A stretch of DNA of 29,753 nt, from positions 1-29,753 of the forward strand of contig JAMOUT010000081.1 of NCBI GenBank assembly GCA_027061995.1, written 5' to 3'. Numbering within the stretch: position 1 is the first letter of the stretch; the number at the start of each line of letters is the position of its first letter. Made by a program: the position numbers and the translations under genes. The DNA is from Candidatus Aminicenantota bacterium. GTDB lineage: Bacteria > Acidobacteriota > Aminicenantia > JAMOAD01. Below the pieces are notes generated by a model that was given only the letters and a program-made list of their open reading frames with translations, had not been told where the DNA came from and did not search any database. This document shows positions 1,520 through 22,193 of the stretch, one piece after another.

Positions 1520-1643
1520 AATAACCTCCGAAAAGAATTTATTAAAATATCATATTAAGCTGTTTTCGGCAATTATCGGTAAAACAGATTCTTAGGGAAA
1601 GCAATACTTGAGGGTTTCAAAAATGGATTTTTTTTTATTCTTG

Positions 1644-1652
1644 TGATATTAT
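1644..1652 (+). promoter_or_regulatory. Extended -10 promoter element
   Basis: The sequence TG-A-TATTAT matches an extended -10 box and lies 8 bases before the RBS AAAGGAGG (1660-1667) of the following ORF. No good -35 is visible. Similar TGnTATxxT boxes precede three other genes in this window. Confidence 0.4.
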
Positions 1653-1681
1653 ATTTTTTAAAGGAGGTTAAAACGGGTGAG

Positions 1682-2221
1682 TTGATTGATTATTCGATGA
1701 AAACTGATTTTCGGTATATGATAAATCATGGATGGAAAAATTTCGGATTATGTTTAATCGGTTTGAAACAAATTATTTCGCAAATTATTCCCGTTTTCTT
1801 CGGAAAATTAAAAATAAAAGATAGGCATAGGGTAATCGAAAGCGTAAAGAATATTACAGGGGAAATTATTATATATAATCTTTTGTTTCTGTTTAAGGAT
1901 GAAATAAAAGATGAAAACCTTGATATGAATTTCAACGGATTGTTTTTTAATTCGGAGTCTGTTGGTTATAATTGTTTTAAAAGCTATTATATTGGCGAGA
2001 TGGTAGCAAAGAAGATAGTTTTAATAATTTTACTTATAATCTTTGGGATATTAAAACAAAAGGGTGATAAATCTGTTGTATCCGTCAAAATTAATTTTTT
2101 GTCTGATGGTGATAGAAGCATATTTAATGGTGTTAACGGTTTTTGTTTAAATAATCTTAACAATTATTCGGAAATAGGAAATAGAGATGTTCTAAGGAAT
2201 TTAATTGGTAGAATGTTTTGA
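1682..2221 (+). CDS. Unrecognised hypothetical protein
   Basis: An open frame of about 179 codons that I do not recognise. It is rich in Ile, Asn, Phe and Lys. One strongly hydrophobic segment (VAKKIVLIILLIIFGIL, about residues 107-123) could be a membrane helix. The C-terminal part is polar and Asn-rich. A strong AAAGGAGG lies at 1660-1667, but the start is unclear. GTG at 1677 gives only two codons before a stop; TTG at 1682 is 14 bases from the RBS; ATG at 1697 is 29 bases away. The frame is open further upstream to 1643, but that overlaps the probable -10 box. The mismatch between RBS and start could mean reinitiation, a recent frameshift or a decayed gene. Confidence 0.4.
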   Translation: MIDYSMKTDFRYMINHGWKNFGLCLIGLKQIISQIIPVFFGKLKIKDRHRVIESVKNITGEIIIYNLLFLFKDEIKDENLDMNFNGLFFNSESVGYNCFKSYYIGEMVAKKIVLIILLIIFGILKQKGDKSVVSVKINFLSDGDRSIFNGVNGFCLNNLNNYSEIGNRDVLRNLIGRMF

Positions 2222-2811: not shown

Positions 2812-2844
2812 TGCTATACTATGTGATTGTGAGAACAAGCACAT
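2812..2844 (+). promoter_or_regulatory. rex promoter with overlapping Rex-like operator
   Basis: TG-C-TATACT (2812-2820) is an extended -10 box. Seven bases later comes TTGTG-8 nt-CACAT (2827-2844), matching the Rex operator consensus TTGTGAANNNNTTCACAA in nine of ten outer positions with the right spacing. The inner spacer is less symmetric. The operator would begin about at the transcription start and ends on the AT of the rex start codon, so bound Rex would block initiation. The predicted leader is only about 16 nt with no clear Shine-Dalgarno. Autoregulation and NADH-responsive control of the whole downstream operon are inferred. Confidence 0.6.
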
Positions 2845-3487
2845 GAATAGGATGAATTTTATAAAACCTGCTATTCCCGAAACAACCCTGAGAAGATTAC
2901 TCTATTATATGAGATGTCTGAGAACTTACAAAAAAGACGGGGTTAAAACTGTTTTATCCGATAATATAGCAAAAAAATGCGGAGTTAAAAGTTCGGTAGT
3001 AAGAAAAGATCTCTCCTATTTCGGAGAATTCGGTGTCAGGGGAAAAGGTTATGATGTTGATGAATTGTGTCATAAACTTGATACTATGCTTAACAGTCTC
3101 GGTCCGATTAATACGATAGTTATAGGAGCGGGAAAACTCGGCACGGCTATAATAAATCACTCAAAAGAAAATTTTAAAACAAATATTATAGCCGCTTTTG
3201 ATAAAAACAGGGATAAAACAGGTAAAAATATAAATGGTGTTCCCGTGTATTCTTTGGATAAACTTGAAGATATAATAAAGGAAAATAATATTAAAATAGC
3301 GGTTATCGCAATTCCCCCCTGTGAGGTTCAACCAGTGGTTGACAGGCTTGTATCCGCCGGAATCAAATCCATATTAAGTTTGGCACTTCTTCCCATAAAT
3401 GTTCCCGAAGGGGTGGAAGTATCTTTTTTTGATGTATTGTCCGAAGTTGAATATCTGTTTTTAAAATTAAATTTTAAGGAGAGTTAA
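2843..3487 (+). CDS. rex: Redox-sensing transcriptional repressor Rex
   Basis: A 214-residue protein, the normal Rex length. The N-terminal winged helix (about 10-70) has IPETTLRRL and the diagnostic VRKDLSYFGEFG-VRGKGY block. A Rossmann domain follows with GAGKLG (95-100) and the dimer-swapping C-terminal helix (about 195-214). Rex binds DNA when NADH/NAD+ is low and releases it when NADH rises. ATG at 2843 keeps the family N-terminus; no strong Shine-Dalgarno precedes it. Its stop at 3485-3487 directly abuts the ATG of the mnhE-like gene, making rex the first gene of the respiratory operon rather than a remote regulator. A Rex-like operator covers its own start. Confidence 0.95.
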   Translation: MNRMNFIKPAIPETTLRRLLYYMRCLRTYKKDGVKTVLSDNIAKKCGVKSSVVRKDLSYFGEFGVRGKGYDVDELCHKLDTMLNSLGPINTIVIGAGKLGTAIINHSKENFKTNIIAAFDKNRDKTGKNINGVPVYSLDKLEDIIKENNIKIAVIAIPPCEVQPVVDRLVSAGIKSILSLALLPINVPEGVEVSFFDVLSEVEYLFLKLNFKES

Positions 3488-3976
3488 ATGAGGGTAATTA
3501 TTTCTACCTTTGTTTTATTTGTTATCTGGGTAATACTTACTCAGAGTTTTGATCCTCAGGAACTAATAACCGGTTTTATTGTAGCTTTCATAGTCAGTAT
3601 GATCTCTCCTGCCATAGCCGGCGAGAAAACCGGAAAATGGTTTCAGCCGAAAAGATATATCTATCTCATAGTATATCTTTTTTATTTTATATGGCAGATG
3701 ATAAAATCAAATATTGATGTTGCAAAAAGGGTGATAAGCCCTAAGCTTCCCATTAAACCGGGGATAGTGAAAGTTAAAACAAAGTTAAAGACAAATGCGG
3801 CAAAATTAGCGCTTGCAAATTCAATAACCCTGACTCCGGGTACTCTTACGGTTGATATAGTGGGAGATGAATTTTATATCCATTGGATTGATGTCGGAAA
3901 TTGTGATGATGTTCATAGAAATTGTCAGGAGATTGCTGAAGGTTTTGAAAAGTATTTGGAGGTGATCTTTGAGTAG
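3488..3976 (+). CDS. mnhE: MnhE/MrpE-like (MbhA-like) membrane subunit
   Basis: A 162-residue protein of the MrpE family. It starts with a hydrophobic region (VIISTFVLFVIWVILTQS, about 2-19), has a second about 24-42 and a third about 55-76 after a basic loop, then a soluble domain containing the family signature LANSITLTPGTLTVDI (about 100-115) and FYIHWIDV. In Mrp antiporters and in Mbh/Mbx complexes this subunit belongs to the ion-translocating membrane module. GGAG lies 6 bases before the ATG, and the gene abuts rex. Here it opens a run of Mrp-type genes in the order E, F, G, DUF4040, E/B, C, D, as in archaeal mbh/mbx clusters. Confidence 0.9.
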   Translation: MRVIISTFVLFVIWVILTQSFDPQELITGFIVAFIVSMISPAIAGEKTGKWFQPKRYIYLIVYLFYFIWQMIKSNIDVAKRVISPKLPIKPGIVKVKTKLKTNAAKLALANSITLTPGTLTVDIVGDEFYIHWIDVGNCDDVHRNCQEIAEGFEKYLEVIFE

Positions 3977-4226
3977 TATACTTATTATAGTTTTGTCTCT
4001 TGTTAGTTTGGCAACACTGTTGGCAACAATTAGAATAATTCAGGGGCCTACAATCCCCGACAGGGCTGTTGGGCTTGATACCGCGACCACTATTACAACA
4101 GCTATGATAGTTCTTTTTTCCCAAATATTTCATAGAGCAATCTATCTTGATATTGCACTTGTTTATGCTGTCCTTGCTTTTCTCGGTGTAATTGCGATTT
4201 CAAGATATCTCGAAGGGGGAATGTGA
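3969..4226 (+). CDS. mnhF: MnhF/MrpF-like (MbhB-like) membrane subunit
   Basis: An 85-residue, three-helix protein of the MrpF family, with the signature RIIQGPTIPDRAVGLD (about 22-37) between helix 1 and helix 2 and ALVYAVLAFLGVIAISRYLE at the end. A TTG start is chosen because GGAGGTGAT (3958-3966) sits immediately upstream and no in-frame ATG fits. The gene overlaps the end of the mnhE-like gene by 8 bases, implying translational coupling. It is a structural part of the Mrp half of the complex. Confidence 0.9.
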   Translation: MSSILIIVLSLVSLATLLATIRIIQGPTIPDRAVGLDTATTITTAMIVLFSQIFHRAIYLDIALVYAVLAFLGVIAISRYLEGGM

Positions 4227-4576
4227 TGCAATGGTATGAAATTATAGGCGTTGTAATGATTGTTACAGGAGCGTTTTTCTTGTTTCTCGGTGCTCTCGGT
4301 GTAATCAGAATGCCGGATGTTTACAATAGAATGCAAGCGGGAACAAAAGCAACCACTCTCGGTGCTTTGTCTCTGATTATGGGAGTTGGTGTTTATCATC
4401 CCGCTTGGTTTTTTAAGACGGGAATCATCTCCCTTTTTATCTTATTGACAAATCCGGTATCTTCAAATGCTCTTGCAAGAGCGGCTCATAATTCGGGCGT
4501 TCCTTTAATTGAGGAGAGTGTTGTTGATAAATATGCTGAAGATAAAGAGGAAATAAAGAAAGAGATGGAGAGTTAA
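4226..4576 (+). CDS. mnhG: MnhG/MrpG-like (MbhC-like) membrane subunit
   Basis: A 116-residue protein of the MrpG family. It has three hydrophobic segments and the family signature LGVIRMPDVYNRMQAGTKA (about 24-42), with the conserved P-D-x-Y/H-x-R-M motif. The C-terminal tail (about 95-116) is acidic and lysine-rich, longer than the core family needs. ATG at 4226 overlaps the previous stop as TGATG and has AGGGGGA five bases upstream; a GTG one codon earlier is less likely. Part of the cation-translocating membrane module. Confidence 0.9.
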   Translation: MQWYEIIGVVMIVTGAFFLFLGALGVIRMPDVYNRMQAGTKATTLGALSLIMGVGVYHPAWFFKTGIISLFILLTNPVSSNALARAAHNSGVPLIEESVVDKYAEDKEEIKKEMES

Positions 4577-4577
4577 A

Positions 4578-4829
4578 ATGGTTATTATATTGGAATATTT
4601 CATGATATTTCTTATTGTTTTAATGATAGCGCTTGCTCTTTTTGCGATAAAAACAAAAGATTTGTTATCCGCTGTAATAGCTTCCGGATTTATCTCGCTT
4701 GTTGCCTCAATTGTTTATCTGTATCTTCAAGCTCCCGATGTGGCGATGACAGAGGCTGCCATAGGAGCCGGTATTACGACTCTTATTTTTGTTGTAGCTG
4801 TTAGAAAAACCAAAGGGAGGGAAAAATGA
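4578..4829 (+). CDS. MbhD-like subunit (DUF4040)
   Basis: An 83-residue, three-helix protein corresponding to the DUF4040 segment that is part of MrpA in true Mrp antiporters but a separate subunit (MbhD) in Mbh/Mbx complexes. The core LYLQAPDVAMTEAAIGAG (about 48-65) is the family signature, including the conserved membrane Asp and Glu. GGAG precedes the ATG by 7 bases, and the stop overlaps the next start as ATGA. A separate MbhD instead of a full MrpA supports a respiratory complex rather than a simple antiporter. Confidence 0.85.
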   Translation: MVIILEYFMIFLIVLMIALALFAIKTKDLLSAVIASGFISLVASIVYLYLQAPDVAMTEAAIGAGITTLIFVVAVRKTKGREK

Positions 4830-5518
4830 GGAAAATCGTAGCAATTGTTTTTCTTGCTATCATCGGTTTTTATATTATCTCTATTTTTTCGGCTTTTCAA
4901 TTCGGAGATAAATATAAAGGTGTTTCAGAACATTATGTTAAAGAGGGAATTATTGAAAACAGAGGTGCGAATCTTGTAACTTCCATAGTTGTTAATTACA
5001 GAGGTTTTGATACTCTCGGGGAGGTTACCGTTCTTTTCCTTGCTGCAACCGGTTTATCCTTTCTCCTTTTTTCATGCAAATGTGAAAGAGAGTTTAAAAG
5101 GATAAAAAGTAGTCTCGTTTTGAGAACTGCAACGGATACGCTTTTCCCCATGATTCTGCTTTTCGGAGCATATATATTTATTCACGGACATCTGACACCG
5201 GGGGGAGGGTTTCAGGGAGGTTCTGTAATAGCTTCCGGAGTTATGCTATTGTTCCTGTCCTTTAGAAGTTTTCACCCGAATCATAAAACGCTTTCCACAA
5301 TCGAAGTTCTTGCGGGGATATCTTTCGCGGGGATAGGTCTTCTGGGGCTTGTCTATGCGAAAAGTTTTCTCGCTAATAGTGTCTTACCCCTCGGACAATG
5401 GAACAGATTAATTTCCGCCGGTGTTATCCCGTTGATATATATTGCGGTCGGTTTAAAGGTTGGTGCGGAACTTTCGGGTTTAATCTCCGATATGATTTCA
5501 ACAACGAAGGAGGATTGA
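4826..5518 (+). CDS. Fused MbhE- and MnhB/MbhF-like membrane subunit
   Basis: A 230-residue protein in two parts. Residues about 1-85 resemble MbhE: one helix, an external loop, then VTSIVVNYRGFDTLGEVTVLFLAATG, equivalent to the end of MrpA. Residues about 95-225 are the MnhB domain, with LILLFGAYIFIHGHLTPGGGFQGG-type residues (seen here as IFIHGHLTPGGGFQGGSV, about 116-133) and LIYIAVGLKVGAELS near the end. In Pyrococcus-type mbh clusters, as I recall, these are two genes, so this looks like a fusion. GGGAGG precedes the ATG, and the start overlaps the DUF4040 stop by 4 bases. Confidence 0.85.
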   Translation: MRKIVAIVFLAIIGFYIISIFSAFQFGDKYKGVSEHYVKEGIIENRGANLVTSIVVNYRGFDTLGEVTVLFLAATGLSFLLFSCKCEREFKRIKSSLVLRTATDTLFPMILLFGAYIFIHGHLTPGGGFQGGSVIASGVMLLFLSFRSFHPNHKTLSTIEVLAGISFAGIGLLGLVYAKSFLANSVLPLGQWNRLISAGVIPLIYIAVGLKVGAELSGLISDMISTTKED

Positions 5519-5519
5519 T

Positions 5520-5885
5520 ATGATATTTTTCGGTGCAAGTTTATTGTTGATACTTATAGGTTTATATGGTGCTCTTGTTAAAAGAAATCTGATTAAAATA
5601 ATAATAGGACTTTCCATAATGGATACGGGAATCAATATGCTGATAATATCACTCGGATTTGTTAAAGGGGGAACAGCCCCTATCATCAGTTTAAAATCAC
5701 TTTTTCAAAAAAACTCTCTTCTTGTTGATGTTTCAAAGATAGTTGATCCTCTTCCTCAGGCACTTGTTCTTACAGCTATTGTTATTGGTGTTGCGGTAAC
5801 AGCTATGGCTCTTTCGGTTGTTATAAGAATGTATTCTGTAAAAAAATCAATAGAAATAGATGATTTTAAGGAGTTAAAATGGTAA
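5520..5885 (+). CDS. mnhC: MnhC/NuoK-like (MbhG-like) membrane subunit
   Basis: A 121-residue, three-helix protein of the MnhC/NuoK family. It has LYGALVKRNLIKIIIGLSIMDTGINMLIISLG-type features (helix 1 to helix 2, shown in short as KRNLIKIIIGLSIMDTGIN) and the conserved end DPLPQALVLTAIVIGVAVTA (about 79-98). Residues 50-78 form a longer loop with GGTAP, as usual for MnhC rather than NuoK. AAGGAGG precedes the ATG. The stop overlaps the start of the antiporter gene by 7 bases. Confidence 0.9.
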   Translation: MIFFGASLLLILIGLYGALVKRNLIKIIIGLSIMDTGINMLIISLGFVKGGTAPIISLKSLFQKNSLLVDVSKIVDPLPQALVLTAIVIGVAVTAMALSVVIRMYSVKKSIEIDDFKELKW

Positions 5886-8800
5886 ATCCGGTAGTTATAA
5901 TAGCAATTACATTAATGGCCGCTTTTTCCATAGGAATTTTTCAATTTTTCGGAAAAAAATTTGTTCGCGGCGTGTTCTGGTTAACTATTCTTTTTGATTT
6001 TTCAGCTGTTTTAAGTATAGCATACGGTTTTCTGACAGGTAAAATAACAAAACCGATAATGGTTAAAATAGGTGGGTTTCCTCCGCCGATAGGGATTAAT
6101 CTTAGTGTTGATAGATTCGGAGCATATCTTGCTGTTGTTATTTTCTTTATCGGAGCTATGGCGGCATATCACTGGTTAAACAAAGGGATTGATGATCCCG
6201 AACCAAAAGCTCTTGTCTTAATGCTACTGCTTCTTCTCGGTTCAACAGGGATGATTTTTACCCAAGACTTTTTTAACCTTTTTGTTTTTATAGAGATTAC
6301 TTCGATAGCTTCTTACGGACTTGTGGCTTCCAATGTGGATTGGTCCTCTCTTGAAGCTTCCTTCAAATACATTGTTATAGGCTCCATCAGTTCAACTTTT
6401 GTTCTTCTCGGAGCTGTTCTTTTATATAAATTCGGTGGAAGTTTGAATATGCTTGATATATCATCAAAGATCACTCCTTCAAGATACGGCGGTGTTCTTA
6501 TGATTATAGCCATAATGTTCCTTTTCGGTTTATTGATAGAGCTTGAATTATTTCCCATGAACGGGTGGGCTCTTGATATTTATCAGGGGGCAAATCCCGC
6601 TGTTGTTGCAATTCTCGCAGGAGGCATTGTCAAAGGTTTTTATCTTGTATTCGTAAGGTCTGCAATCTATTTGAAATTTCCGTATATATTGAAAATAGGA
6701 TTGATTTTCGGACTTACAACTTATCTTGTAAGTCAGTTTTTTGCCTGGAAACAAAAAGATATCAGAAGGCTTTTCGGATATTCTTCCGTCGGACAGCTCG
6801 GACTTTTGGTTCTTGCCGCCGGTTTTTATGTAGGGGGCGGACTTCAGGGAATAGATAAAACTTATATGCTCCTTGCGATAGTGTTTTTTGTTTTAAATCA
6901 TAGTTTTTCAAAATCCACGCTATTTTTTATTACGGATTTGATAGAAGAAAAAGACATTGAAAAATGGAAAGGGGTTTTAAAAGGTAATAAATTATTAAAA
7001 ACTCTGTTTTCAACATCAGTTTTATCGATGGCGGGTGCTCCTCCGTTTATAGGATTTTGGGCGAAACTATTTTTCGTCCTTGCGATTCCGAAACAATACT
7101 TTTATGTGGTTGTTCTTGTTCTTCTCGGAGCTGTTGCGGAAATCATCTATTATTTTAATTTATATAGAATAACTTCTTCCGATTCTGAGAATTGTTTTGA
7201 GATCAAAGGCAGTATTGTTCCTGCAAGTATGAATACACTTGTTCTTCTCGGGCTTTCTTTTTTGAGCGGATACTATTTTTTCTTATATACAAGAATTTCC
7301 GTATCTACAAATCTTCTTATTATGATGGGGGCAGCTATAATTATATATATTTTCGGTTTTTCGAGGATTTTTCAATGGGTTTTATCCCTCGGGATTTTGA
7401 GCTATGCTTTGTATCTATTTAAAAATATTAATATAAATCTTCAAGGATTCTTTTTGCTTTTTATTCTTGTCGGCGGATTAATTCTTGTTTTCGCGACATA
7501 TCCGGTATCAAAAAAATATTCTTGGAGTTTTTACCCTCTTCTGATTTTTTCAGTTTTATCCATGGTAGGAATCGCTTTGGCAAAAGAGTGGATTTCCCTT
7601 TTTATTTTTTGGGAACTTATGTCATGGTCATCCTATCTTATAATAAATCAGGGGAGCAAAGCTAAAAAAGCATCATGGGTTTATTTGGTTATGAGTGCCA
7701 TAGGCGGTTATGCAATGCTGTCGGGAATAAAATTATTAACAAGCGGTCCGAATTTGGTTCCAGGATTTAATTCGACGGCTATGAGATATTCGACTCTTTC
7801 AGCTATTCTTATTTTTACAGCTTTTCTCATTAAAATGGCAACCGCTCCTGTTCATATTTGGGCAAGAGAAGCGTATGGAGAAAGTCCTGACGGATTTACC
7901 CCTATTCTTTCGGGAATTCTTTCCAAAATGGGTGTTTTCGGAGCTATTTTAACCGTCGTGTATCTTCTTCCCCATACTGCTCATTCTAGTGTAATCCTTT
8001 ACGGGTTGGCTCTTTTCGGAGCGTTAACCGCACTTTTTATGGCGCTTTTTGCTGCATTTCAGGAAAATGTGAAAAAAGTTCTCGCTTATTCTTCGGTTAG
8101 TCAAGTCGGATATATCTTGATAGGAATAGCTCTTGCATCCTCTCTCGGATATTCCGCCGCACTTTACCATACCGTTAATCATTTGATATTCAAAGGGCTA
8201 CTCTTTGTTGCGGTAGCCGGAATTATTTATAGAACCGGAACAAGTTATCTTCCCGAAATGGGAGGGCTTATAAGAAGAATGCCTGTTACATTCCTGGCTT
8301 TTCTAATGGGAATCATAACTCTTGCCGGGATTCCCCCTCTATCGGGGTTTGCAGGTAAATGGTTATTATATTCCGCACTTCTTGAGAAAAAATGGATGTT
8401 TATTCTTCTTATAGCCATGTTTGCATCTATTGTGGCTTTTATGTATTGTTATAAATTATTGCACACAATATTCTTGGGACAACTCAGAGATAAATATATA
8501 AAAGTAAAAGAGGTTCCTCTACCAATTGCTATCGTGGAGCTCGTTTTGGCAGGTTTAACTATGGCTGTGGGAATAAAACCATCCTTAATTCTTGATTTTT
8601 CAGATAAAGTTGTTAAATCTCTCGGATTTTATGGTCCGGGTTATGCTTATCAGGGAGCACACAGGATTGTCTCAAAATTCGGATATTGGAATGCTTATTT
8701 CATGGCTGTGTTTGCAATAGGTGCTTTTATTATTGCATTAGTTCTTTTCTTCTTGGTAAAAGCTAAAATAAGAAAAGTGGGACAGCTTGATATAGGTTAT

Positions 8801-9049
8801 TCGGGTGAAGTTCCAGATAGTCCAGAGAGTGTTCATTTCGGATATGATCTTTATGCTCATATGAGAAGAGCTGTTTCACCTTTTATCTCACCGATAATGG
8901 AAAATTCATATAAAAAAGTTTATAATGGAATTGCCGCTTTTGTTGATTATGCACGAAGATTTTATACGGGTGATTTGAATACATATGCTATGTGGGTGAT
9001 AATAACACTGAGCTTTATTTTTTATATATTTTATAAAGGAGTATTCTAA
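5879..9049 (+). CDS. Fused double antiporter subunit (MrpD/NuoM-like x2) with MbhI-like tail
   Basis: A 1056-residue membrane protein, about twice the length of one NuoL/M/N antiporter subunit. The first unit spans about 1-480, with helix-5 Glu139 (FIEITS), Lys252 (GGIVKGFYL) and KSTLFF around 345. The second spans about 485-920, with Glu579 (FWELMS), Lys652 (LIKMATAPVHIW) and NHLIFKG. In the first unit the usual helix-7 lysine, five residues before the P-x-x-x-W proline, is Glu221 (IELELFPMNGW). The last 130 residues have one helix, an amphipathic soluble stretch with YTGDLNTY, and a final helix; this may replace MbhI, which anchors the pump to the peripheral arm. Mbx/Mbs complexes carry two such antiporters as separate genes. 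An ion-pumping role is inferred. Confidence 0.88.
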   Translation: MVNPVVIIAITLMAAFSIGIFQFFGKKFVRGVFWLTILFDFSAVLSIAYGFLTGKITKPIMVKIGGFPPPIGINLSVDRFGAYLAVVIFFIGAMAAYHWLNKGIDDPEPKALVLMLLLLLGSTGMIFTQDFFNLFVFIEITSIASYGLVASNVDWSSLEASFKYIVIGSISSTFVLLGAVLLYKFGGSLNMLDISSKITPSRYGGVLMIIAIMFLFGLLIELELFPMNGWALDIYQGANPAVVAILAGGIVKGFYLVFVRSAIYLKFPYILKIGLIFGLTTYLVSQFFAWKQKDIRRLFGYSSVGQLGLLVLAAGFYVGGGLQGIDKTYMLLAIVFFVLNHSFSKSTLFFITDLIEEKDIEKWKGVLKGNKLLKTLFSTSVLSMAGAPPFIGFWAKLFFVLAIPKQYFYVVVLVLLGAVAEIIYYFNLYRITSSDSENCFEIKGSIVPASMNTLVLLGLSFLSGYYFFLYTRISVSTNLLIMMGAAIIIYIFGFSRIFQWVLSLGILSYALYLFKNININLQGFFLLFILVGGLILVFATYPVSKKYSWSFYPLLIFSVLSMVGIALAKEWISLFIFWELMSWSSYLIINQGSKAKKASWVYLVMSAIGGYAMLSGIKLLTSGPNLVPGFNSTAMRYSTLSAILIFTAFLIKMATAPVHIWAREAYGESPDGFTPILSGILSKMGVFGAILTVVYLLPHTAHSSVILYGLALFGALTALFMALFAAFQENVKKVLAYSSVSQVGYILIGIALASSLGYSAALYHTVNHLIFKGLLFVAVAGIIYRTGTSYLPEMGGLIRRMPVTFLAFLMGIITLAGIPPLSGFAGKWLLYSALLEKKWMFILLIAMFASIVAFMYCYKLLHTIFLGQLRDKYIKVKEVPLPIAIVELVLAGLTMAVGIKPSLILDFSDKVVKSLGFYGPGYAYQGAHRIVSKFGYWNAYFMAVFAIGAFIIALVLFFLVKAKIRKVGQLDIGYSGEVPDSPESVHFGYDLYAHMRRAVSPFISPIMENSYKKVYNGIAAFVDYARRFYTGDLNTYAMWVIITLSFIFYIFYKGVF

Positions 9050-9954
9050 TGTGGTATAAGATATTATACGGTTTACTCGTTGTAGTCGGCGGATTGGCTT
9101 ACGGTTTACTTCTCGGAGGGATTTCAAGAAAAATTACCGCGAGACTTCACGGAAGAAGAGGTCCTACGGTTTTTCAGAATTATATTGACTTAATTAAACT
9201 CATTAGGAAAAAAACCGCTATTTCACACGGAACAATGTTTTTCCTTGCTCCGATGTTCAGACTTCTCGGAGGAATAGGGGTTCTGCTCCTTGTTCCTATT
9301 GTTACTAAAAGTGCGATTCTCTCAAATTTTTCCTTCGGGGGAGATCTTATTGTTGTCCTTTATTTCATGGTCTTCGGATGTCTTGGGATGGCACTCGGTG
9401 CGGCGGATAGCGGTCATCCCCATTCTGCGCTTGCTCCCACAAGAGGGCTTGCCCAAATGGCCGGTTATGAACTTCCTTTTCTAATATCTGTCATAGGGCT
9501 TGCAATAGCTCATAATACGGTAAGTCTCGGGACGCTTGTTTCCGCTCAGCAGGGAGGAATTCTCCATTGGAATCTTTTCCAATATCCTTTCTTAAGCATC
9601 GCAGGTTTTATTGCTATGCTCGGTATGTATATGGCTTATCCGTTTTCAGTTGTTATGGCTCCTCAGGAAATAGCTGTTGGACCTCCTACTGAATACAGTT
9701 CCACTTTTCTATCTTTTATGTTTACCGGTAGAAGTCTTTTCGGAGTAGGGAAATATGTTCTGTTCATGGACTTGTTTCTCGGTGGTGCTACGAATCTTTT
9801 GGAAGCATTTGTTAAAACATTCGCTATCTTCCTTTTTGTTGTTTTTATCACCGGTGTATTCCCGAGATACAGAACAGAGCAAGCGGTTAAATTCTTTTGG
9901 ACATATCCTGTTGTAATCGGTTTAATAGATTTTATAAGAATCTTTATTAAGTGA
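9049..9954 (+). CDS. NuoH/MbhM-like membrane anchor subunit
   Basis: A 301-residue protein of the NuoH/HycD/MbhM family with about eight helices. Family signatures: GISRKITARLHGRRGPTVFQ (about 24-43), where the first cytoplasmic loop meets the peripheral arm; SGHPHSALAPTRGLAQMAGYELPF (about 121-144, the E-loop; quoted here as STRGLAQMAGYE-like); and AVGPPTEYSS (about 204-213). The last two are the acid-rich loops that link redox chemistry to proton or sodium movement. The start overlaps the antiporter stop as TAATG, and the end abuts the NuoB-like gene. It connects the Mrp-type pump to the electron-transfer arm. Confidence 0.92.
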   Translation: MWYKILYGLLVVVGGLAYGLLLGGISRKITARLHGRRGPTVFQNYIDLIKLIRKKTAISHGTMFFLAPMFRLLGGIGVLLLVPIVTKSAILSNFSFGGDLIVVLYFMVFGCLGMALGAADSGHPHSALAPTRGLAQMAGYELPFLISVIGLAIAHNTVSLGTLVSAQQGGILHWNLFQYPFLSIAGFIAMLGMYMAYPFSVVMAPQEIAVGPPTEYSSTFLSFMFTGRSLFGVGKYVLFMDLFLGGATNLLEAFVKTFAIFLFVVFITGVFPRYRTEQAVKFFWTYPVVIGLIDFIRIFIK

Positions 9955-9961
9955 GGTGAAA

Positions 9962-10537
9962 ATGAAAGATAATAAATATTTTTTGGATGATAGACCCGAA
10001 AAAATAAGTTATAGTGAGGTCTGGCAGAAATTTTTCAATTGGGCGAGAGCAAAATCCCTTTGGGTTGTCGCTTATGGAACAGGTTGCGGTTCAATTGAGA
10101 TTCCCCCTATGGTTACATCCAGATTTGATGCCGAAAGATTCGGAGTTAGTAATGTGGGAACTCCGAGGCAAGCTGATGTTCTTATTATAAGCGGATATCT
10201 TGCGGTTAAAACTCTTAAAAGGGTTATAAGAGTATATGAGCAGATGCAGAGCCCTAAATATGTTGTGGGTTTGGGTGCATGCACTGTAAACGGAGGGATG
10301 TATTATGATTCTTATAATACTGTAAATCTAGTAGATCAATATGTTCCCATAGATGTTTTCGTGGCAGGTTGTATGCCGAGGCCTGAGGCTATTCTTGCCG
10401 GGTTTGCGCAGTTGATGAAAAAAATAAAAGAGGGTAGAGCCGACGGATGGAAACAATATTTGGATAATCTTGATAAATACAGAAAAAATCAGGAAAAAGT
10501 TATAAAAAACTGGAAAATACCAAATTATAATTGGTGA
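9962..10537 (+). CDS. NuoB/MbxJ-like Fe-S subunit
   Basis: A 191-residue soluble protein of the NuoB/MbhJ family, which normally holds the [4Fe-4S] cluster nearest the catalytic site. Visible motifs: TGCGSIEIPP (about 41-50), TPRQADVLIISGY, GLGACTVNGGMYYDSY and VAGCMPRPEA. Complex I has a C-C-x-x-E pair at the first motif and hydrogenases have C-x-x-C-x-x-E; here only one Cys remains, with Gly next to it. From memory, archaeal MbxJ proteins share TGCG-x-x-E-x-PP...TSRFD-x-ERFG, so this supports an Mbx-type complex. The tail after about 155 is lysine-rich. ATG at 9962 is preferred over a GTG two codons earlier because GAGGTG sits just upstream. Confidence 0.9.
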   Translation: MKDNKYFLDDRPEKISYSEVWQKFFNWARAKSLWVVAYGTGCGSIEIPPMVTSRFDAERFGVSNVGTPRQADVLIISGYLAVKTLKRVIRVYEQMQSPKYVVGLGACTVNGGMYYDSYNTVNLVDQYVPIDVFVAGCMPRPEAILAGFAQLMKKIKEGRADGWKQYLDNLDKYRKNQEKVIKNWKIPNYNW

Positions 10538-10545
10538 GGTATATT

Positions 10546-11085
10546 ATGGAACAAACAATAAAAAAACTGGAAAATATTTTTAAAATAGTTAAGAAAGAGA
10601 AAGGTAAAAGGGAAAATCTTAATATTCTGGAGGTTGAAAAAGATTCTCTTCATGCTGTTTTAAGTTATCTTAGGGATAATGAATCTTTCAAACATCTTGC
10701 TCTTGTTTCCTGTGTGGATTGGATTGAAGATAATAAATTCCAATTATCATATATTTTATGGAGTTATCAGAGAAGGGTAAATCTTATCATTAAAATATTC
10801 ATTGACAGAGATAAACCCGAGTTTAAAACCATAATGAACCTTTTTCCGCAAGCTGAAGTTTATGAAAGAGAGATAAAAGAACTTTACGGAGTTAATTTTG
10901 AAGGTAATCCCACTCAGGATGAAGAATTTGTTCTTGAGGATTGGGATCAGATTCCTCCGATGAGAAGGGATTTTGATACTCTAAAATACTCAAATGAGAT
11001 GTTCGGAGACAGAGATTCGGAAGTTAAAAAAACAAATATTAGGAAAATTATCTCCGATTATACGGATGAATGGAGAAGAAAATGA
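10546..11085 (+). CDS. NuoC/MbxK-like subunit (30 kDa)
   Basis: A 179-residue soluble protein of the NuoC/MbhK family. The C-terminal signature is clear: FPQAEVYEREIKELYGVNFEGNP (about 103-125; core YEREIKELYGV) followed by LEDWDQIPPMRRDFD. The N-terminal 95 residues form the usual alpha/beta fold with LVSCVDWIEDN. It bridges the NuoB- and NuoD-like subunits. GTGAGGT lies before the ATG at 10546; an upstream in-frame TTG would place this motif inside the gene. Its stop overlaps the NuoD-like start by 4 bases (ATGA). Confidence 0.9.
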   Translation: MEQTIKKLENIFKIVKKEKGKRENLNILEVEKDSLHAVLSYLRDNESFKHLALVSCVDWIEDNKFQLSYILWSYQRRVNLIIKIFIDRDKPEFKTIMNLFPQAEVYEREIKELYGVNFEGNPTQDEEFVLEDWDQIPPMRRDFDTLKYSNEMFGDRDSEVKKTNIRKIISDYTDEWRRK

Positions 11086-12200
11086 AGGAATTTAAAAGAG
11101 AAGATAGAGAAGTAAAACTTTTTGTTGGTCCTCAACATCCGGGTGTTACGGGAAATATGAGTTTTGAGATTACTCTTGAAGGAGATACTCTGACAAGCGT
11201 TAAAACGCATGTCGGTTATTTGCATAGGGCATTTGAAAAACTTATGGAGAGAAGATTGTATATACAGAATTTCCCCCTTGTTTGCCGAATCTGTGTTCCC
11301 GAGTCTGATACGAATGAAGAAAATTATGCAAGAGCACTTGAAGAACTTGCGGGTATTGAAGTGCCGGAAAGAGCGAAATGGATACGAACACTTGTTCTTG
11401 AATTATCAAGACTACAGATGTTTATAAGGTGGATGGGCGGAATTGCCGGAACAATGGGACTTTCAACCGCACCTCAATGGGCGATAGGAGATAGGGATTA
11501 TATTCTTGACCTTTTTGAGGAACTTACCGGTGGAAGAATTTATCATATCTATATTTTACCGGGTGGTGTCAGAAGAGATATTCCCGAAGGGTTTGAGGAG
11601 AGAGTTCTAAAAGTTATGGATTATATTGAGAAAAAATTGCCCGATTATGATGATTTGATTTTTGAAAACAGTGTTTTTAAGAAAAGATTGATAGGACTTT
11701 CCAAACTTGATCCCGCTTGGGTTGAAGAGATAGGTGTTACAGGCCCTGTTGCAAGAGCATGCGGTTTTCCTTTTGATGTCAGAAAAGAGCAACCTTATGA
11801 GATATATGATAAACTTGATTTTGATATTATAACTGAAACAGGTTGCGATATGTATTCGATGGCACTTGTCAGAAGAAGAGAGATAGATTTGAGTATTAAT
11901 CTCATAAGACAGATAATAGATAAAATGCCGAAAGGTGAAGTTTGGACACCACTACCAAATGTTCTTTATTGGAAAATTCCCGCCGGTGAGACTTATGTTA
12001 AAACAGAGGCGACAAGAGGAGAGTTCGGATACTATGTTGTAACCGATGGCTCTGATAAACCGCGAAGAATTCATGTCAGAGGGGTTTCAACTCCTCATGC
12101 CTATACTCTTCTTGAAAGACTTGTTCCCGGAATGAATATTTCGGATTTTTCTGTAACAATAGTGGGGCTTCAAACATGCCCGCCGGAAATTGAAAGATAA
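11082..12200 (+). CDS. NuoD/MbxL-like catalytic subunit lacking the [NiFe] cysteine set
   Basis: A 372-residue member of the NuoD / [NiFe]-hydrogenase large-subunit superfamily. It starts with VGPQHPGVTG (about 15-24), continues with LHRAFEKLMERR, and later has GARGEFGYYVV-like TRGEFGYYVVTDGS. Hydrogenases bind NiFe through R-x-C-G-x-C near the N-terminus and D-P-C-x-x-C at the C-terminus. Here these read R69-I-C71-V-P-E74 and T-C366-P-P-E369, five residues from the end; in both, the second cysteine is Glu. It is therefore not an H2-forming enzyme of the usual kind and fits Mbx/Mbs. The start at 11082 is chosen for GGAG six bases upstream and the ATGA overlap with the NuoC-like gene. Confidence 0.9.
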   Translation: MKEFKREDREVKLFVGPQHPGVTGNMSFEITLEGDTLTSVKTHVGYLHRAFEKLMERRLYIQNFPLVCRICVPESDTNEENYARALEELAGIEVPERAKWIRTLVLELSRLQMFIRWMGGIAGTMGLSTAPQWAIGDRDYILDLFEELTGGRIYHIYILPGGVRRDIPEGFEERVLKVMDYIEKKLPDYDDLIFENSVFKKRLIGLSKLDPAWVEEIGVTGPVARACGFPFDVRKEQPYEIYDKLDFDIITETGCDMYSMALVRRREIDLSINLIRQIIDKMPKGEVWTPLPNVLYWKIPAGETYVKTEATRGEFGYYVVTDGSDKPRRIHVRGVSTPHAYTLLERLVPGMNISDFSVTIVGLQTCPPEIER

Positions 12201-12210
12201 GGAGGATGTA

Positions 12211-13983
12211 ATGGATATAAAAGGGATCTTAAAACCTTTAACAGCGTGGAAAAGAGCTTTTAAGCCGCCTCATACGATAGAGGTTCCCAATAAAGTAACA
12301 AGGGAAGGTGCGGAAAGATACAGAGGTTTTCATGTTAATGATATGGATAAATGTATAGGCTGCGGAACTTGTGCCGCAATATGTGAAAACGAGGCTATTA
12401 AAATGATTCCGATTAATGATCCTGATAAAGGGAACTCTGGATACAGACCGAGAATTGATTATGGTAGATGTTGCTGGTGTGCATTATGTGTTGATATATG
12501 TCCGACAGGTTCTCTTGAGATGACAAATGAATATACTTGGGTAAGAGAAACCGGAGATGAATTCATATTTACTCCCGGAATTGATATTATCGGTCATGAG
12601 GATAAAAAGGATAAAGGGTTTAAAAAAGATGATAAACTGAATTTTCTCCATCTTGAAAGGGTGCCTATGAGAGAACTTGATCCTAAGGAGAGAACACAAA
12701 CATTTGCCGAAGCCGTGCTCGGTTATTCCGAAGAAGAGGCCAGAGCCGAGGCTGAAAGATGTGTTGGTTGCGGACTTTGTATTTCCGGCTGTCCGGACAG
12801 AATGCATATCCCCGATTATATAAGAGCTATAGCCGAGGGAAATGATCAAAAATCGCTGAATATTATCTATGAAAATAACCCGCTTCCCGAGATGTGCGGT
12901 AAAGTATGCACAAGAAGATGCGAATTCGAGTGTTCTTTGGGTCATCTTGGTGAACCTGTTGCCATAAGGTGGTTGAAGAGATATGTTGTAGAGCAGTTTG
13001 ATGATTTGAAAAAATATGTTGATGCTAAACCCGAACCTCTTAACGGAAAGAAAGTTGGTATAATAGGGGCAGGTCCCGCCGGATTAACGGCTGCATATTA
13101 TTTAAGACTTAAAGGTTATGAAACCGAAATTTTCGAAGCTGCACCAAAAGCCGGAGGAATGACTTTTCTCGGTATCCCCAAATACAGATTCCCGATACCA
13201 TCTCTTGATAAACAAGTTGAATTAATTGAATCCGTAGGTGTTAAAATAAATTATAATTCCCCCGTTGACAGTAAAAAATTCAAAAAAATATATGATAAAT
13301 ATGATGCCGTATTCATAGCAACCGGAGCTCCCAAGGGGATGTCCATGAGGATAGACGGAGAAGATCATCCCAAAGTTCTCGCTGCGATAGATTTTCTTAA
13401 AACTATTAATCTTGGAGGAACCGTTGATATAGGTAAAGAGGTTGTTGTTGTAGGTGGTGGAAATGTTGCTATTGATGCTGTCAGAGTATCAAAAAGACTT
13501 GGTGCAAATTCTTATATAGCGTATAGAAGAAGAGTCGTGGATATGCCGGCTGACGAAGAAGAGATTGAAGCGACAGAAGCTGAAGGAATCCCGATTTATA
13601 CACAGATTATACCTTTGAGAGTGGAAGACGGGCCGAAAGGAAAAGTAAAACTTATCTATGGTAAAGCTAAGATGGTTCAGGAAAAAGAGGGTGCAAGGCC
13701 AAGACCTGTCTTAATCGAAGGAAAAGAGTATGAATATGTGGTTGATTCAATAATAGTAGCTATAGGTCAAAGACCTGATCTTGATTTTATCCCCGAAGAT
13801 ATCAGAAATAAACTGGAAATGGAAAAGAGAATAATAAAGGTGGATAAGAGACAGATGACAAATATTGATAAAGTATTTGCCGGAGGAGATCTTGCGAATT
13901 GGACAGCGGATGCTATATCAGCCATTGCGGATGGTTTAAGAGCTGTAAAAGGTATAGAGCTTTATCTCTCTTCTAAGAAATAG
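12211..13983 (+). CDS. NuoI-like ferredoxin fused to GltD/NfnB-type NADPH flavoprotein
   Basis: A 590-residue fusion. Residues about 35-105 form a NuoI-like double [4Fe-4S] domain (Cys48/51/54/58 and 87/90/93/97). Residues about 170-250 are the GltD N-terminal Fe-S domain (CVGCGLCISGCPD from 184, and Cys229/233/237/241). Then comes an FAD-binding fold (GAGPAG about 286) and an NAD(P)H-binding insert (VVGGGNVAID about 413) with YRRR at 438-441, typical of NADPH-preferring enzymes, ending at FAGGDLANW...AIADG. It would join the MbxN-type subunit of the complex to NADP(H) chemistry. GGAGG at 12201-12205 sets the ATG at 12211; an upstream TTG would put the RBS inside the gene. Substrate specificity is inferred. 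Confidence 0.88.
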   Translation: MDIKGILKPLTAWKRAFKPPHTIEVPNKVTREGAERYRGFHVNDMDKCIGCGTCAAICENEAIKMIPINDPDKGNSGYRPRIDYGRCCWCALCVDICPTGSLEMTNEYTWVRETGDEFIFTPGIDIIGHEDKKDKGFKKDDKLNFLHLERVPMRELDPKERTQTFAEAVLGYSEEEARAEAERCVGCGLCISGCPDRMHIPDYIRAIAEGNDQKSLNIIYENNPLPEMCGKVCTRRCEFECSLGHLGEPVAIRWLKRYVVEQFDDLKKYVDAKPEPLNGKKVGIIGAGPAGLTAAYYLRLKGYETEIFEAAPKAGGMTFLGIPKYRFPIPSLDKQVELIESVGVKINYNSPVDSKKFKKIYDKYDAVFIATGAPKGMSMRIDGEDHPKVLAAIDFLKTINLGGTVDIGKEVVVVGGGNVAIDAVRVSKRLGANSYIAYRRRVVDMPADEEEIEATEAEGIPIYTQIIPLRVEDGPKGKVKLIYGKAKMVQEKEGARPRPVLIEGKEYEYVVDSIIVAIGQRPDLDFIPEDIRNKLEMEKRIIKVDKRQMTNIDKVFAGGDLANWTADAISAIADGLRAVKGIELYLSSKK

Positions 13984-14018: not shown

Positions 14019-14765
14019 ATGAAAGTTTTGGTTGCCGGGATGTCTAACCTTGAACATCAAGGTCAGCAAGGTGTGATTGATAGTATAACCTCTCTTTTGA
14101 AAAAAATGGGGGTTGATTATCAGATATTTACGGATGAGGTTAAATGTTGGGAAGCAACACTTAATCTCGGATTTGAAGATATAAGCGAAAAAGTATCAAA
14201 AGAGTTTAAAGAGAAAGCGGAAGCAACGGGGGCGGATCTCATAATCTCCTCTTTTGCTGCCGGTGTTCAAAAATGGAGAACCGAATTACCCAATCAATAC
14301 GGGTTAGAATTGGGAATCCCCTATATTCATGTTTCACAATTTATTGCGGATGAGTTTAAAAAGAGTTCACCCGATCTTGCTCCATTTCCGCATAAATATT
14401 TTGTGCAACACGGATGCACGCTCGGAAGGAAGATGAAAGGGTTTCAAGCAATAAGAGATGTTTTATCTTATGTTCCCGAGATAGAGGTTCTTGAGGAGGA
14501 ACATCCGACTGCAGAACTTGAGAAGATGGATAAAGCCGAGTTTAATACATGCCCGGGTTCATGGTTAAATTTCACACAACCCGAACTCGGAGATTATATT
14601 AAAGAAAACTATGTTCTTTCGGTTCTTGCTCCCGCCAATCCCGATTATGCGGGATCAACTTGTGCAAACGGCCATTATGGAATAGTTCAGGGGCTTGAAA
14701 TAGCGGAAATCGAGGATATAAAACCCCTTTATTTTACCGAACTTTTAGATAGGATTTGGAGGTAA
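14019..14765 (+). CDS. LutA/HdrB-like protein with degenerate CCG domains
   Basis: A 248-residue protein with the two-domain layout of the CCG family (LutA, GlpC C-terminus, HdrB). Domain 1: KCWEATLNLGFEDISEK then GADLIISSFAAGVQKW and LELGIPYIHVSQFI. Domain 2: QHGCTLGRKMKG, NTCPGS and STCANG. In the family these sites are CCG, C-x-x-C, H-x-x-C-x-L-G-R, CCG and C-x-x-C. Only Cys43, 133, 178 and 215 remain, so non-cubane clusters probably cannot form in domain 1 and are doubtful in domain 2. AAGGAGG lies 6 bases before the ATG. The gene follows the NuoI/NfnB-like fusion by 35 bases and overlaps nothing, but its RBS and spacing suggest the same operon. It pairs with the LutB-like gene next to it. 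Confidence 0.7.
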   Translation: MKVLVAGMSNLEHQGQQGVIDSITSLLKKMGVDYQIFTDEVKCWEATLNLGFEDISEKVSKEFKEKAEATGADLIISSFAAGVQKWRTELPNQYGLELGIPYIHVSQFIADEFKKSSPDLAPFPHKYFVQHGCTLGRKMKGFQAIRDVLSYVPEIEVLEEEHPTAELEKMDKAEFNTCPGSWLNFTQPELGDYIKENYVLSVLAPANPDYAGSTCANGHYGIVQGLEIAEIEDIKPLYFTELLDRIWR

Positions 14766-14767
14766 AA

Positions 14768-16039
14768 ATGAGTGAAAAAGAGAAAGAGATACAGAAAATT
14801 TTTAATGATTATATGGCTGAGATAATAGCTGACGGAGCTGAAAATGAAACACTTCGAGTGGCTCTTAAAAGAGCTGTTAATTCTTACAGAGGAAACCTTA
14901 AAAAAGCTCTTGAACTGTTTCCCGATTCAATAGATTATAAAGAAAAAGCAAGAAAGATTAAAGAGTATTCAATCGATCATCTTGAAGAGCTTATTGACCA
15001 AACAAAAAAAGCTGTTGAAAGAAATCACGGGGTTTTTCATTTTGCCAAAGATGCGGATGAAGCTAATGAAATAATAGCTGATATAGTCGGAAAACCTAAA
15101 AAAACGATTGTTAAAGGTAAAAGTTTGACTACCGAAGAGACAGAATTAAGACAGTATCTGCAAGAGAAAGGGCATGAAGTGTGGGAAACCGATCTCGGAG
15201 AATTTCTTGTTCAAATAAGAGATGGAAGACCTATGCATATGTTAGCTCCCTCGGTTGATTTAACAAGAGAAGAAGCGGCTGAACTCATTTCAAAGATTAC
15301 GGGTAAAGATTTGCCGAAAGACAGAATTGATACATCGGTTGAAGCGGTCAGAGAATTTTTAAGAGATAAATTTACAAAAGCAGACACAGGTATTTCAGGT
15401 GCCAATGTGATTGCCGCTGAAACAGGAACTCTGTTTATTATTGAGAATGAGGGTAATATTAAAGTAGCGGCATCGTGTCCCGATAAATATGTTGCTCTTG
15501 TAGGGGTTGAGAAAATAGTTCCCACTCTTGAGGATGCAATGCATCTTGTTAAAACAACTTGGAGATTTGCAAATTATGTTGTTCCATCTTATGTTCATAT
15601 GATTTCAGGACCATCAAAGACCGGAGATATTGAAAAAACAACGACCTACGGAGCTCACGGACCGAGAGAATTTCATATGGTGCTTCTTGATAATGGCAGA
15701 CTTGATGTTGCTAAAAACGATGATTTTAAGGAGCTCTTGTATTGTATGAAATGCGGAGCATGTATGTATGAGTGTCCGGTTTTTTGGGTAACAGCAGGTC
15801 ATTTCGGGAAAAAGTATCCGGGAGGAATAGGCGCATTATGGGATGCTTTTGTTGCAACAGGCATGGAAGAAGCCGCTCCCTCGGTATATAGTTGCGCAAT
15901 ATGCGGAAGATGTAAAACAAGATGTCCTCTCAATATTGATACTGATAAAATGATTAAAAAATTGAGAAAAATTCTATATAAGAAAGGTTATACACCTGCA
16001 ATATTAAAGGAGATGAAAGATACCTTTTTCAAGGGATAA
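14768..16039 (+). CDS. LutB-like LUD-domain iron-sulfur protein
   Basis: A 423-residue protein resembling LutB, the Fe-S subunit of the LutABC lactate-oxidation system. Residues about 20-290 carry the LUD (DUF162) domain: KSLTTEET-like GKSLTTEETELRQYL, WETDLGEFLVQI, ISGANVIAAETGT and PSKTGDIE. The ferredoxin part follows: Cys326/329/332/336 (CMKCGACMYECP) and Cys376/379/382/386 (CAICGRCKTRCP), giving two [4Fe-4S] clusters. It lacks the long C-terminal tail of Bacillus LutB. GGAGG at 14758-14762 sets the ATG at 14768; the RBS lies inside the end of the LutA-like gene. It is the last gene of the operon. Lactate or another 2-hydroxyacid as substrate is possible, but no LutC or dehydrogenase is adjacent. 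Confidence 0.8.
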   Translation: MSEKEKEIQKIFNDYMAEIIADGAENETLRVALKRAVNSYRGNLKKALELFPDSIDYKEKARKIKEYSIDHLEELIDQTKKAVERNHGVFHFAKDADEANEIIADIVGKPKKTIVKGKSLTTEETELRQYLQEKGHEVWETDLGEFLVQIRDGRPMHMLAPSVDLTREEAAELISKITGKDLPKDRIDTSVEAVREFLRDKFTKADTGISGANVIAAETGTLFIIENEGNIKVAASCPDKYVALVGVEKIVPTLEDAMHLVKTTWRFANYVVPSYVHMISGPSKTGDIEKTTTYGAHGPREFHMVLLDNGRLDVAKNDDFKELLYCMKCGACMYECPVFWVTAGHFGKKYPGGIGALWDAFVATGMEEAAPSVYSCAICGRCKTRCPLNIDTDKMIKKLRKILYKKGYTPAILKEMKDTFFKG

Positions 16040-20987: not shown

Positions 20988-22193
20988 ATGAAAATAACCA
21001 TGGTTATCCCTACATACTGGGGAAGAAAAAAAGCGGAGGGGTGGAAAGAGGGAGATGCAATATATGATCATCCAACCCCCCTTGATGAACAGGGAACACT
21101 CAAAAGAGCCATAGAGAGTATAAATATTCTTGAAAATAAAAATTTTAATCTTGCGATTATAGCAGCGGCAACCGCTCCCGATATAGAGGAGCAGGTGGAG
21201 AAAAAGGTCAGGGAGATTGTTTCCTCCGTTAATACGGGAGTCAAAACCGAAGTTTTTTCTCATTCGGATTTAAGAAAAATTCATGATTTTTTCAAACTTA
21301 ATTCAATGCCTGAATATAATGAACTCTTAAAGTTAAGAGGATACTCAAATATAAGAAATCTTTGCCTTTTTATCCCTCATATGCAAGATTCCGATATCTC
21401 AATATTGATAGATGATGATGAGATATTCGAAGATCCGAAGTTTATGGATAAAGCAGGGGAATTTATAGGAAAAAAAATTGAAAATAATATCATTCATGGG
21501 ATAGCGGGTTATTATATTCAGGAAGAAAATGATTTCCTTGTTAATAAAGAGTTAAAACCATATATGGTTTATTGGGATAAATTTGACAAGATGAACAAAG
21601 GGTTTAAAGAGATTATAGGAAGTGAACCGCGAGTGAAAAAGACCCCTTTTGTTTTCGGGGGTAATATGGTTATAGATAAACATCTGTTTAAAAAAATTCC
21701 GTTTGATCCTTTTGTCACAAGAGGTGAAGATATAGATTATCTTATGAATGCGAAAATGTTCGGATATCAGTTTTATCTTGACAACAAACTTTCGATAAAA
21801 CATCTTCCTCCTCCGAAACCTCATCCCACATGGAGAAGGGTAAGGGAAGATATCTATCGCTTTATGTATGAGAGGGAAAAAATAAGAGCTCAGAAAAAGA
21901 CAGAGGGGATGATAAAAGTATCGGCTGAAGATTTTGATCCTTATCCGGGAGAATTTTTAAAAGATAATCTTGAAGAAAAAATAATTAAAACAAGTGAGAT
22001 TCTCGCATTGGAATATCTTTCTGAAAATAAACCCGAAGATGCGAAAGAATCTTTAAATAATATGTTGATAGATCCAGAAACTCTGAATTTTGAAGATCCT
22101 TTTTCCAATTATCTTAAGATTCAAGAAAAATGGGAAAAGATGATGAATATTATTGAAAAAGATAATTTGAAAGAAAAAATCAATAATTTATAG
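20988..22193 (+). CDS. GT-A-type glycosyltransferase
   Basis: A 401-residue cytosolic protein with a glycosyltransferase family 2-like fold. MKITMVIPTYWG opens the nucleotide-sugar domain, and SILIDDDEIFEDP (about 138-150) has the acidic metal-binding cluster. FGGNMVIDKHLF, then TRGEDIDYLMNAKMFGYQFY and the HLPPP stretch, form the acceptor/catalytic region; the Glu-Asp pair in RGEDID is the likely catalytic base. The last 110 residues are charged and helical, with an ALEYLSENKPEDAKESLNNM stretch like a tetratricopeptide helix pair. A strong RBS precedes it. The substrate is unknown; it stands alone, so its product could be a cell-surface glycan, a glycolipid or a protein. Confidence 0.78.
   Translation: MKITMVIPTYWGRKKAEGWKEGDAIYDHPTPLDEQGTLKRAIESINILENKNFNLAIIAAATAPDIEEQVEKKVREIVSSVNTGVKTEVFSHSDLRKIHDFFKLNSMPEYNELLKLRGYSNIRNLCLFIPHMQDSDISILIDDDEIFEDPKFMDKAGEFIGKKIENNIIHGIAGYYIQEENDFLVNKELKPYMVYWDKFDKMNKGFKEIIGSEPRVKKTPFVFGGNMVIDKHLFKKIPFDPFVTRGEDIDYLMNAKMFGYQFYLDNKLSIKHLPPPKPHPTWRRVREDIYRFMYEREKIRAQKKTEGMIKVSAEDFDPYPGEFLKDNLEEKIIKTSEILALEYLSENKPEDAKESLNNMLIDPETLNFEDPFSNYLKIQEKWEKMMNIIEKDNLKEKINNL

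What the first reader, a model, noticed from the sequence alone, without database searches (positions are those of the whole stretch)
11082..12200. Both [NiFe] cysteine pairs changed to C-x-x-E in the NuoD-like subunit
The N-terminal motif reads C71-V-P-E74 and the C-terminal one C366-P-P-E369. Matching Cys-to-Glu changes at the same place in both motifs are unlikely to be chance. They suggest a site with two Cys and two Glu facing each other, which may bind a different metal or act as an acid pair. Hydrogenases need four Cys, and complex I NuoD has none of them.
Basis: partly seen in the sequence, partly recalled or inferred. Interest (0 to 1): 0.7.

Follow-up and report, generated by a model that had tools for sequence, protein, structure and literature searches.

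The report
Sulfur-reductase subunit with vestigial hydrogenase pocket
The gene encodes the complex-I-like subunit of a bacterial relative of the archaeal membrane-bound sulfur reductase, and the C-x-x-E changes are the normal signature of that known family, in which a hydrogenase ancestor lost its nickel-iron centre, rather than a new metal site.

Summary
The subunit at 11082-12200 (+) reads C71-V-P-E74 and C366-P-P-E369, and both Glu fall in the columns of the second Cys of each [NiFe] CxxC motif of E. coli HycE. It is not a private change. The published P. furiosus MbsL structure (6U8Y) already reads CVPE and CPPD, and 80 of 80 related bacterial loci keep an acid at position 74. The C-terminal acid is also present in ordinary complex I NuoD, so only E74 is special to the MBS type.

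The two Cys are not the constrained part. In one subclade C366 becomes Tyr and C71 often becomes Ala while both acids stay, and P. furiosus MbsL C85A/C385A keeps its activity. That speaks against a Cys2Glu2 metal site and leaves a pocket acid pair possible but unproven.

The operon is a complete MBS/MBX-type complex with Mrp-like membrane subunits, a NuoB-like subunit with only three cluster Cys (as in MBS), and a NuoI-NfnL fusion suggesting NAD(P)H as donor. The organism is near Candidatus Aminicenantes. New member of a known kind, low to moderate interest. Pocket geometry stayed unresolved: the model is unreliable at residues 18-24 and 367-372.

The parts
11082..12200 (+). NuoD/MbsL-like large subunit, 372 aa, ends at R372
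   Evidence: best PDB sequence match 6u8y_L E 1.8e-98, best fold match 6u8y_L TM 0.93
11292..11303 (+). codons of C71-V72-P73-E74, N-terminal ex-[NiFe] motif
12177..12188 (+). codons of C366-P367-P368-E369, C-terminal ex-[NiFe] motif
12015..12017 (+). codon of R312, column of hydrogenase active-site Arg (HycE R478); Lys in complex I and P. furiosus MbsL
11283..11285 (+). codon of C68, a further Cys three residues before C71, conserved in 68 of 80 relatives but not in P. furiosus
9956..10537 (+). NuoB/MbsJ-like subunit; only three Cys (C44, C109, C139), all at proximal-cluster ligand columns
10531..11085 (+). NuoC-like (30 kDa) subunit
12190..13983 (+). fusion of NuoI/MbsN-like ferredoxin domain with NfnL/GltD-like FAD-NAD(P) domain
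9049..9954 (+). NuoH/MbsM-like membrane anchor
5879..9049 (+). 1056-aa fusion of two antiporter-like subunits (NuoN-like and NuoM-like; probable MbsH and MbsH' counterparts)
3488..3976 (+). MrpE-like
3969..4226 (+). MrpF-like
4223..4576 (+). MrpG-like
4578..4829 (+). MbhD-like
4826..5518 (+). MrpB-like
5520..5885 (+). MrpC/NuoK-like

Best explanation
The gene is the large peripheral-arm subunit (MbsL type) of a bacterial MBS/MBX (energy-converting hydrogenase-related) complex. Shown: the sequence columns, the family-wide conservation, the MBS-type three-Cys NuoB subunit and the complete operon. Inferred: NAD(P)H, or ferredoxin, feeds electrons through the NfnL-NuoI fusion to the proximal [4Fe-4S] cluster in the NuoB-like subunit; the open iron site of that cluster reduces a sulfane-sulfur (polysulfide-like) substrate in the pocket where a hydrogenase would hold Ni-Fe; and the energy drives ion pumping by the Mrp-like membrane arm. 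E74 and E369 stand where the two metal-bridging Cys were before the Ni-Fe site was lost; they most likely keep the pocket's fold and charge, perhaps against R312, and do not hold a metal. C71 and C366 are remnants of the terminal Ni ligands.
For: MbsL is the closest solved relative by sequence and fold and carries the same motifs, CVPE and CPPD. Acids at 74 and 369 are universal in 80 and 78 relatives while both Cys are replaceable. The NuoB-like subunit has a single Cys in the loop where complex I has two adjacent Cys and MBH has two spaced ones, as expected for the three-Cys cluster of MBS, and this is conserved across the family. Complex I quinone residues H38 and Y87 are T23 and V72 here. 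The operon order is conserved across many phyla. MbsL C85A/C385A is active and catalysis is assigned to the three-Cys cluster (PMC7684303).
Against: No substrate evidence exists for this bacterial clade; sulfur reduction is carried over from P. furiosus at 43-44% identity. Unlike P. furiosus MbsL, most of this clade has R312, no Asp at 364 and C68, and Gly instead of MbsJ C25, so the substrate may differ. The role of R312 is a guess; the model is unreliable at residues 18-24 and 367-372.
Confidence: 0.75

Rival explanations
1. The two Cys and two Glu form a new metal site (for example Zn or Fe) in the old Ni-Fe pocket.
For: All four residues fall at the four former ligand columns, and Cys2Glu2 is a plausible ligand set.
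Against: Cys are lost in many relatives with both acids kept; the P. furiosus double Cys mutant is active and only three [4Fe-4S] clusters are described for MBS (PMC7684303).
Confidence: 0.05
2. E74 and E369 form a functional acid pair that shuttles protons or orients the substrate, coupling chemistry in the pocket to the membrane arm.
For: Acids at both positions are invariant apart from conservative Asp, even where both Cys are gone; they stand at the former bridging-ligand columns.
Against: The published MBS mechanism is proposed to need no protons in the pocket (PMC7684303); the 369 acid is also in complex I; geometry unresolved.
Confidence: 0.3
3. The complex is a ferredoxin:NAD(P)+ oxidoreductase as in the older Mbx proposal, and the pocket is not catalytic.
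For: An NfnL-like NAD(P)-binding domain is fused to the NuoI-like subunit in the window and lies next to it in most relatives; older literature calls Mbx a ferredoxin:NADP oxidoreductase (PMC4596419).
Against: The open-site NuoB cluster motif is conserved; several relatives (Chromatiaceae, Campylobacterota) lack the NfnL domain beside the operon; the P. furiosus complex was later shown to be a sulfane reductase (PMC7684303).
Confidence: 0.15
4. The protein is a canonical quinone-reducing complex I NuoD with accidental Cys.
For: The NCBIfam NuoD equivalog model passes its cut-off.
Against: The quinone-site His and Tyr are replaced; a separate canonical-type NuoD is in the same genome at C52; the tree sets the group apart from NuoD.
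Confidence: 0.03

Closest known systems
P. furiosus membrane-bound sulfane reductase MBS (formerly MBX), subunit MbsL, PDB 6U8Y
   Same: Sequence (43-44% identity) and fold (TM 0.93); N-terminal CVPE identical; C-terminal CPP followed by an acid; quinone residues absent; partner NuoB-like subunit with a three-Cys cluster motif; Mrp-like membrane arm.
   Different: C-terminal Glu for Asp; R312 for Lys; C68 present; MbsJ C25 replaced by Gly; the two antiporter-like subunits fused; NuoI subunit fused to an NfnL-like domain.
Thermotoga maritima and other bacterial MBX/MBS complexes
   Same: Bacterial MBS homologues in 13-gene clusters, induced by sulfur in T. maritima (PMC9431562) and in strain 3DAC (PMC10356935).
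   Different: Not compared by sequence here.
Group 4 [NiFe] hydrogenases (E. coli HycE, P. furiosus MbhL)
   Same: Homologous large subunit; C71 and C366 retained at terminal Ni-ligand columns; ends at the HycE R537 column.
   Different: Both second Cys are Glu, so the Ni-Fe site cannot form as in hydrogenases.
Complex I NuoD / Nqo4
   Same: Homologous; shares Glu at the 369 column.
   Different: Has Asp at 71, Ser/Ala/Gly at 74 and Val at 366, and the quinone His and Tyr that are absent here.

Membership tests
MBS (membrane-bound sulfane reductase) / MBX | MbsL-type subunit with two of four hydrogenase Cys kept (C85, C385) and the other two absent | tested here: met
   C71 and C366 kept, E74 and E369 at the other columns
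MBS (membrane-bound sulfane reductase) / MBX | Proximal cluster held by three Cys of MbsJ, one iron open | tested here: met
   Sequence only: C44, C109, C139 are the only Cys in the NuoB-like subunit; the cluster itself was not observed
MBS (membrane-bound sulfane reductase) / MBX | Complete Mrp-like membrane arm with two antiporter-like subunits | tested here: met
   Operon 3488-9954, antiporter subunits fused
MBS (membrane-bound sulfane reductase) / MBX | Quinone residues H38 and Y87 of complex I absent | tested here: met
   T23 and V72
MBS (membrane-bound sulfane reductase) / MBX | Reduces sulfane sulfur with reduced ferredoxin | not testable with these tools
   Needs biochemistry; the NfnL fusion suggests NAD(P)H as donor
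Group 4 [NiFe] hydrogenase | Four Cys in two CxxC motifs | tested here: not met
   CxxE and CxxE
Complex I NuoD | Quinone headgroup residues His38 and Tyr87 (Nqo4 numbering) | tested here: not met
   T23 and V72

The most novel reading that the evidence does not exclude
The invariant acid pair E74/E369, together with R312, is a functional element of the sulfane-reductase pocket (proton relay or substrate-orienting site), kept in bacterial relatives even after both remaining hydrogenase Cys are gone.
Probability: 0.25. Interest if true: 0.5.

Novelty: new member of a known kind. Interest (0 to 1): 0.25.

Why it matters
MBS sits between hydrogenases and complex I. The survey suggests that what MBS-type subunits conserve in the emptied Ni-Fe pocket are the two acids, not the two remaining Cys, and it shows natural intermediates (Cys/Cys, Cys/Tyr, Ala/Tyr). 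That gives simple mutants to test which old ligand positions still matter. The window also adds an NfnL-fused version found across many bacterial phyla, though bacterial MBS complexes as such are already reported.

Tried and rejected
The AlphaFold2 model could not decide whether E74 and E369 face each other, because residues 18-24 and 367-372 have pLDDT under 50. Library searches for Yarrowia 49-kDa mutants at the equivalent positions and for bacterial NfnL-fused MBS found nothing that settled the point. An unbiased phylum search around a Bacteroidales relative gave only two hits in 198 genomes. An apparent in-frame stop in L047 and L049 lies just before the start codon. PMC9123182 uses mbsl for metres below sea level and is unrelated. 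A chance origin of the double Glu was rejected because of family-wide conservation.

Full report
What is there. The frame 11082-12200 (+) encodes 372 residues with C71-V-P-E74 and C366-P-P-E369 and ends at R372. Pfam and NCBIfam file it as complex I 49-kDa/NuoD, but the closest solved chain is P. furiosus MbsL, 6u8y_L (E 1.8e-98), and the closest fold is also 6u8y_L (TM 0.93).

Are the Glu at the cysteine columns? Yes. In alignment with E. coli HycE (sequence), C71 falls on C241, E74 on C244, C366 on C531, E369 on C534, and R372 on R537. R537 is, from established knowledge, the residue after which HycE is cut on maturation, so this protein ends where a mature hydrogenase ends. The retained Cys are at the terminal Ni-ligand columns and the Glu at the bridging ones (established knowledge of [NiFe] sites).

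Is it new? The P. furiosus structure reads RICVPE and CPPDIDR. Yu et al. 2020 (PMC7684303) already state that MbsL keeps C85 and C385 and lacks the other two, that C85A/C385A is active, and that catalysis is at a proximal [4Fe-4S] cluster with three Cys. The passages read do not mention the acids.

Survey. One scan of genome contigs gave 80 relatives, from Aminicenantes, Fermentibacterota, Bacteroidota, Spirochaetota, Cloacimonadota, Pseudomonadota, Campylobacterota and others. The nearest, 92% identical, is a Candidatus Aminicenantes MAG. One of the two scan patterns contains RICVPE, so conservation was checked separately on the 44 loci that do not match that pattern: acid at 74 in 44 of 44 and at 369 in 43 of 43. 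Over all, position 74 is E in 75 and D in 5 of 80; 369 is E in 75 and D in 3 of 78; 71 is C in 68, A in 11, S in 1; 366 is C in 53 and Y in 25 of 78. All Tyr-366 members lie in one well-supported clade, and Ala-71 or Ser-71 occurs only with Tyr-366. The tree has long branches for HycE and MbsL, so deep placements are unsure. The limit of 80 best loci means more distant relatives were not sampled.

Complex I. At the 369 column NuoD also has Glu, in 17 of 17 aligned sequences that reach it, within V-L-G-E-[VI]-D-R; at 71 it has Asp and at 74 Ser, Ala or Gly. So the C-terminal acid belongs to the whole non-hydrogenase branch as sampled, and only E74 is particular to MBS-type subunits. I recall from memory that Yarrowia 49-kDa mutants were made at these columns; the library search did not find the paper.

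Neighbouring subunits. The NuoB-like protein has only C44, C109 and C139, with GTGCG where MbsJ has CTGCG and complex I has adjacent Cys (PMC7684303). The single Cys at this place, without an adjacent one, is universal in the relatives whose sequence covers it. This is the MBS pattern, and MbsJ C25, which does not bind the cluster in P. furiosus, is simply gone. The operon holds MrpE, F, G, MbhD, MrpB, MrpC, a fused pair of antiporter-like subunits, NuoH, B, C, D and a NuoI-NfnL fusion. The order is kept in most relatives; Chromatiaceae of one group and Campylobacterota members show no NfnL part beside NuoI and carry MrpE downstream.

Two subfamilies. P. furiosus and a small bacterial group (Caldifarciminota, some Spirochaetota) have Lys at 312, Asp at 364, CTGC in NuoB and Asp at one or both acid positions. 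The rest, with the window, have Arg at 312, no Asp at 364, mostly GTGC and Glu at both. R312 is the column of HycE R478, described as a conserved hydrogenase arginine (PMC9474812). This is one split on the tree, so it is a lineage marker, not repeated evidence of a functional link.

Mechanism. Shown: columns, conservation, operon, three-Cys motif. Inferred: NAD(P)H or ferredoxin input through the NuoI-NfnL fusion, sulfane reduction at the open cluster, ion pumping by the membrane arm. The acids probably fill and balance the emptied pocket; a catalytic or proton role is possible. A Cys2Glu2 metal site is unlikely. The AlphaFold2 model (mean pLDDT 88.8) is poor at 18-24 and 367-372, and no coordinates were at hand, so the geometry is open.

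Verdict. Observation confirmed, interpretation partly supported, new member of a known kind.

Noticed in passing
window 11283-11285: C68, three residues before C71, is conserved in 68 of 80 bacterial relatives, and 74 of 80 have a Cys at 67 or 68, but P. furiosus MbsL has none there; it often stays when C71 is Ala.
   Followed up: partly
window 12190-13983: NuoI-like ferredoxin domain fused to an NfnL/GltD-like FAD-NAD(P) domain; the two lie side by side after the MBS-type subunits in most relatives across phyla.
   Followed up: partly
window 14019-16039: Two genes just after the operon resemble a CCG-domain protein and LutB/LldF (LUD plus Fer4); no counterpart was found next to the operon in the 80 related loci, many of which are cut short.
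   Followed up: no
window 2843-3487: A Rex-type redox-sensing repressor gene lies directly before the operon, as in a few relatives (L034, L036, L038, L039, L090).
   Followed up: no
L072:953-1951 and similar loci: A dihydroorotate-dehydrogenase-like gene lies just upstream of the operon in many Bacteroidales relatives, and rubrerythrin-like genes lie directly downstream in several others (L037, L062, L064, L078, L086, L101; Pfam checked on L064 and L078 only).
   Followed up: partly
window 1643-2221, 20988-22193, 27755-29626: Three sizeable ORFs without any Pfam match at E 0.001.
   Followed up: no
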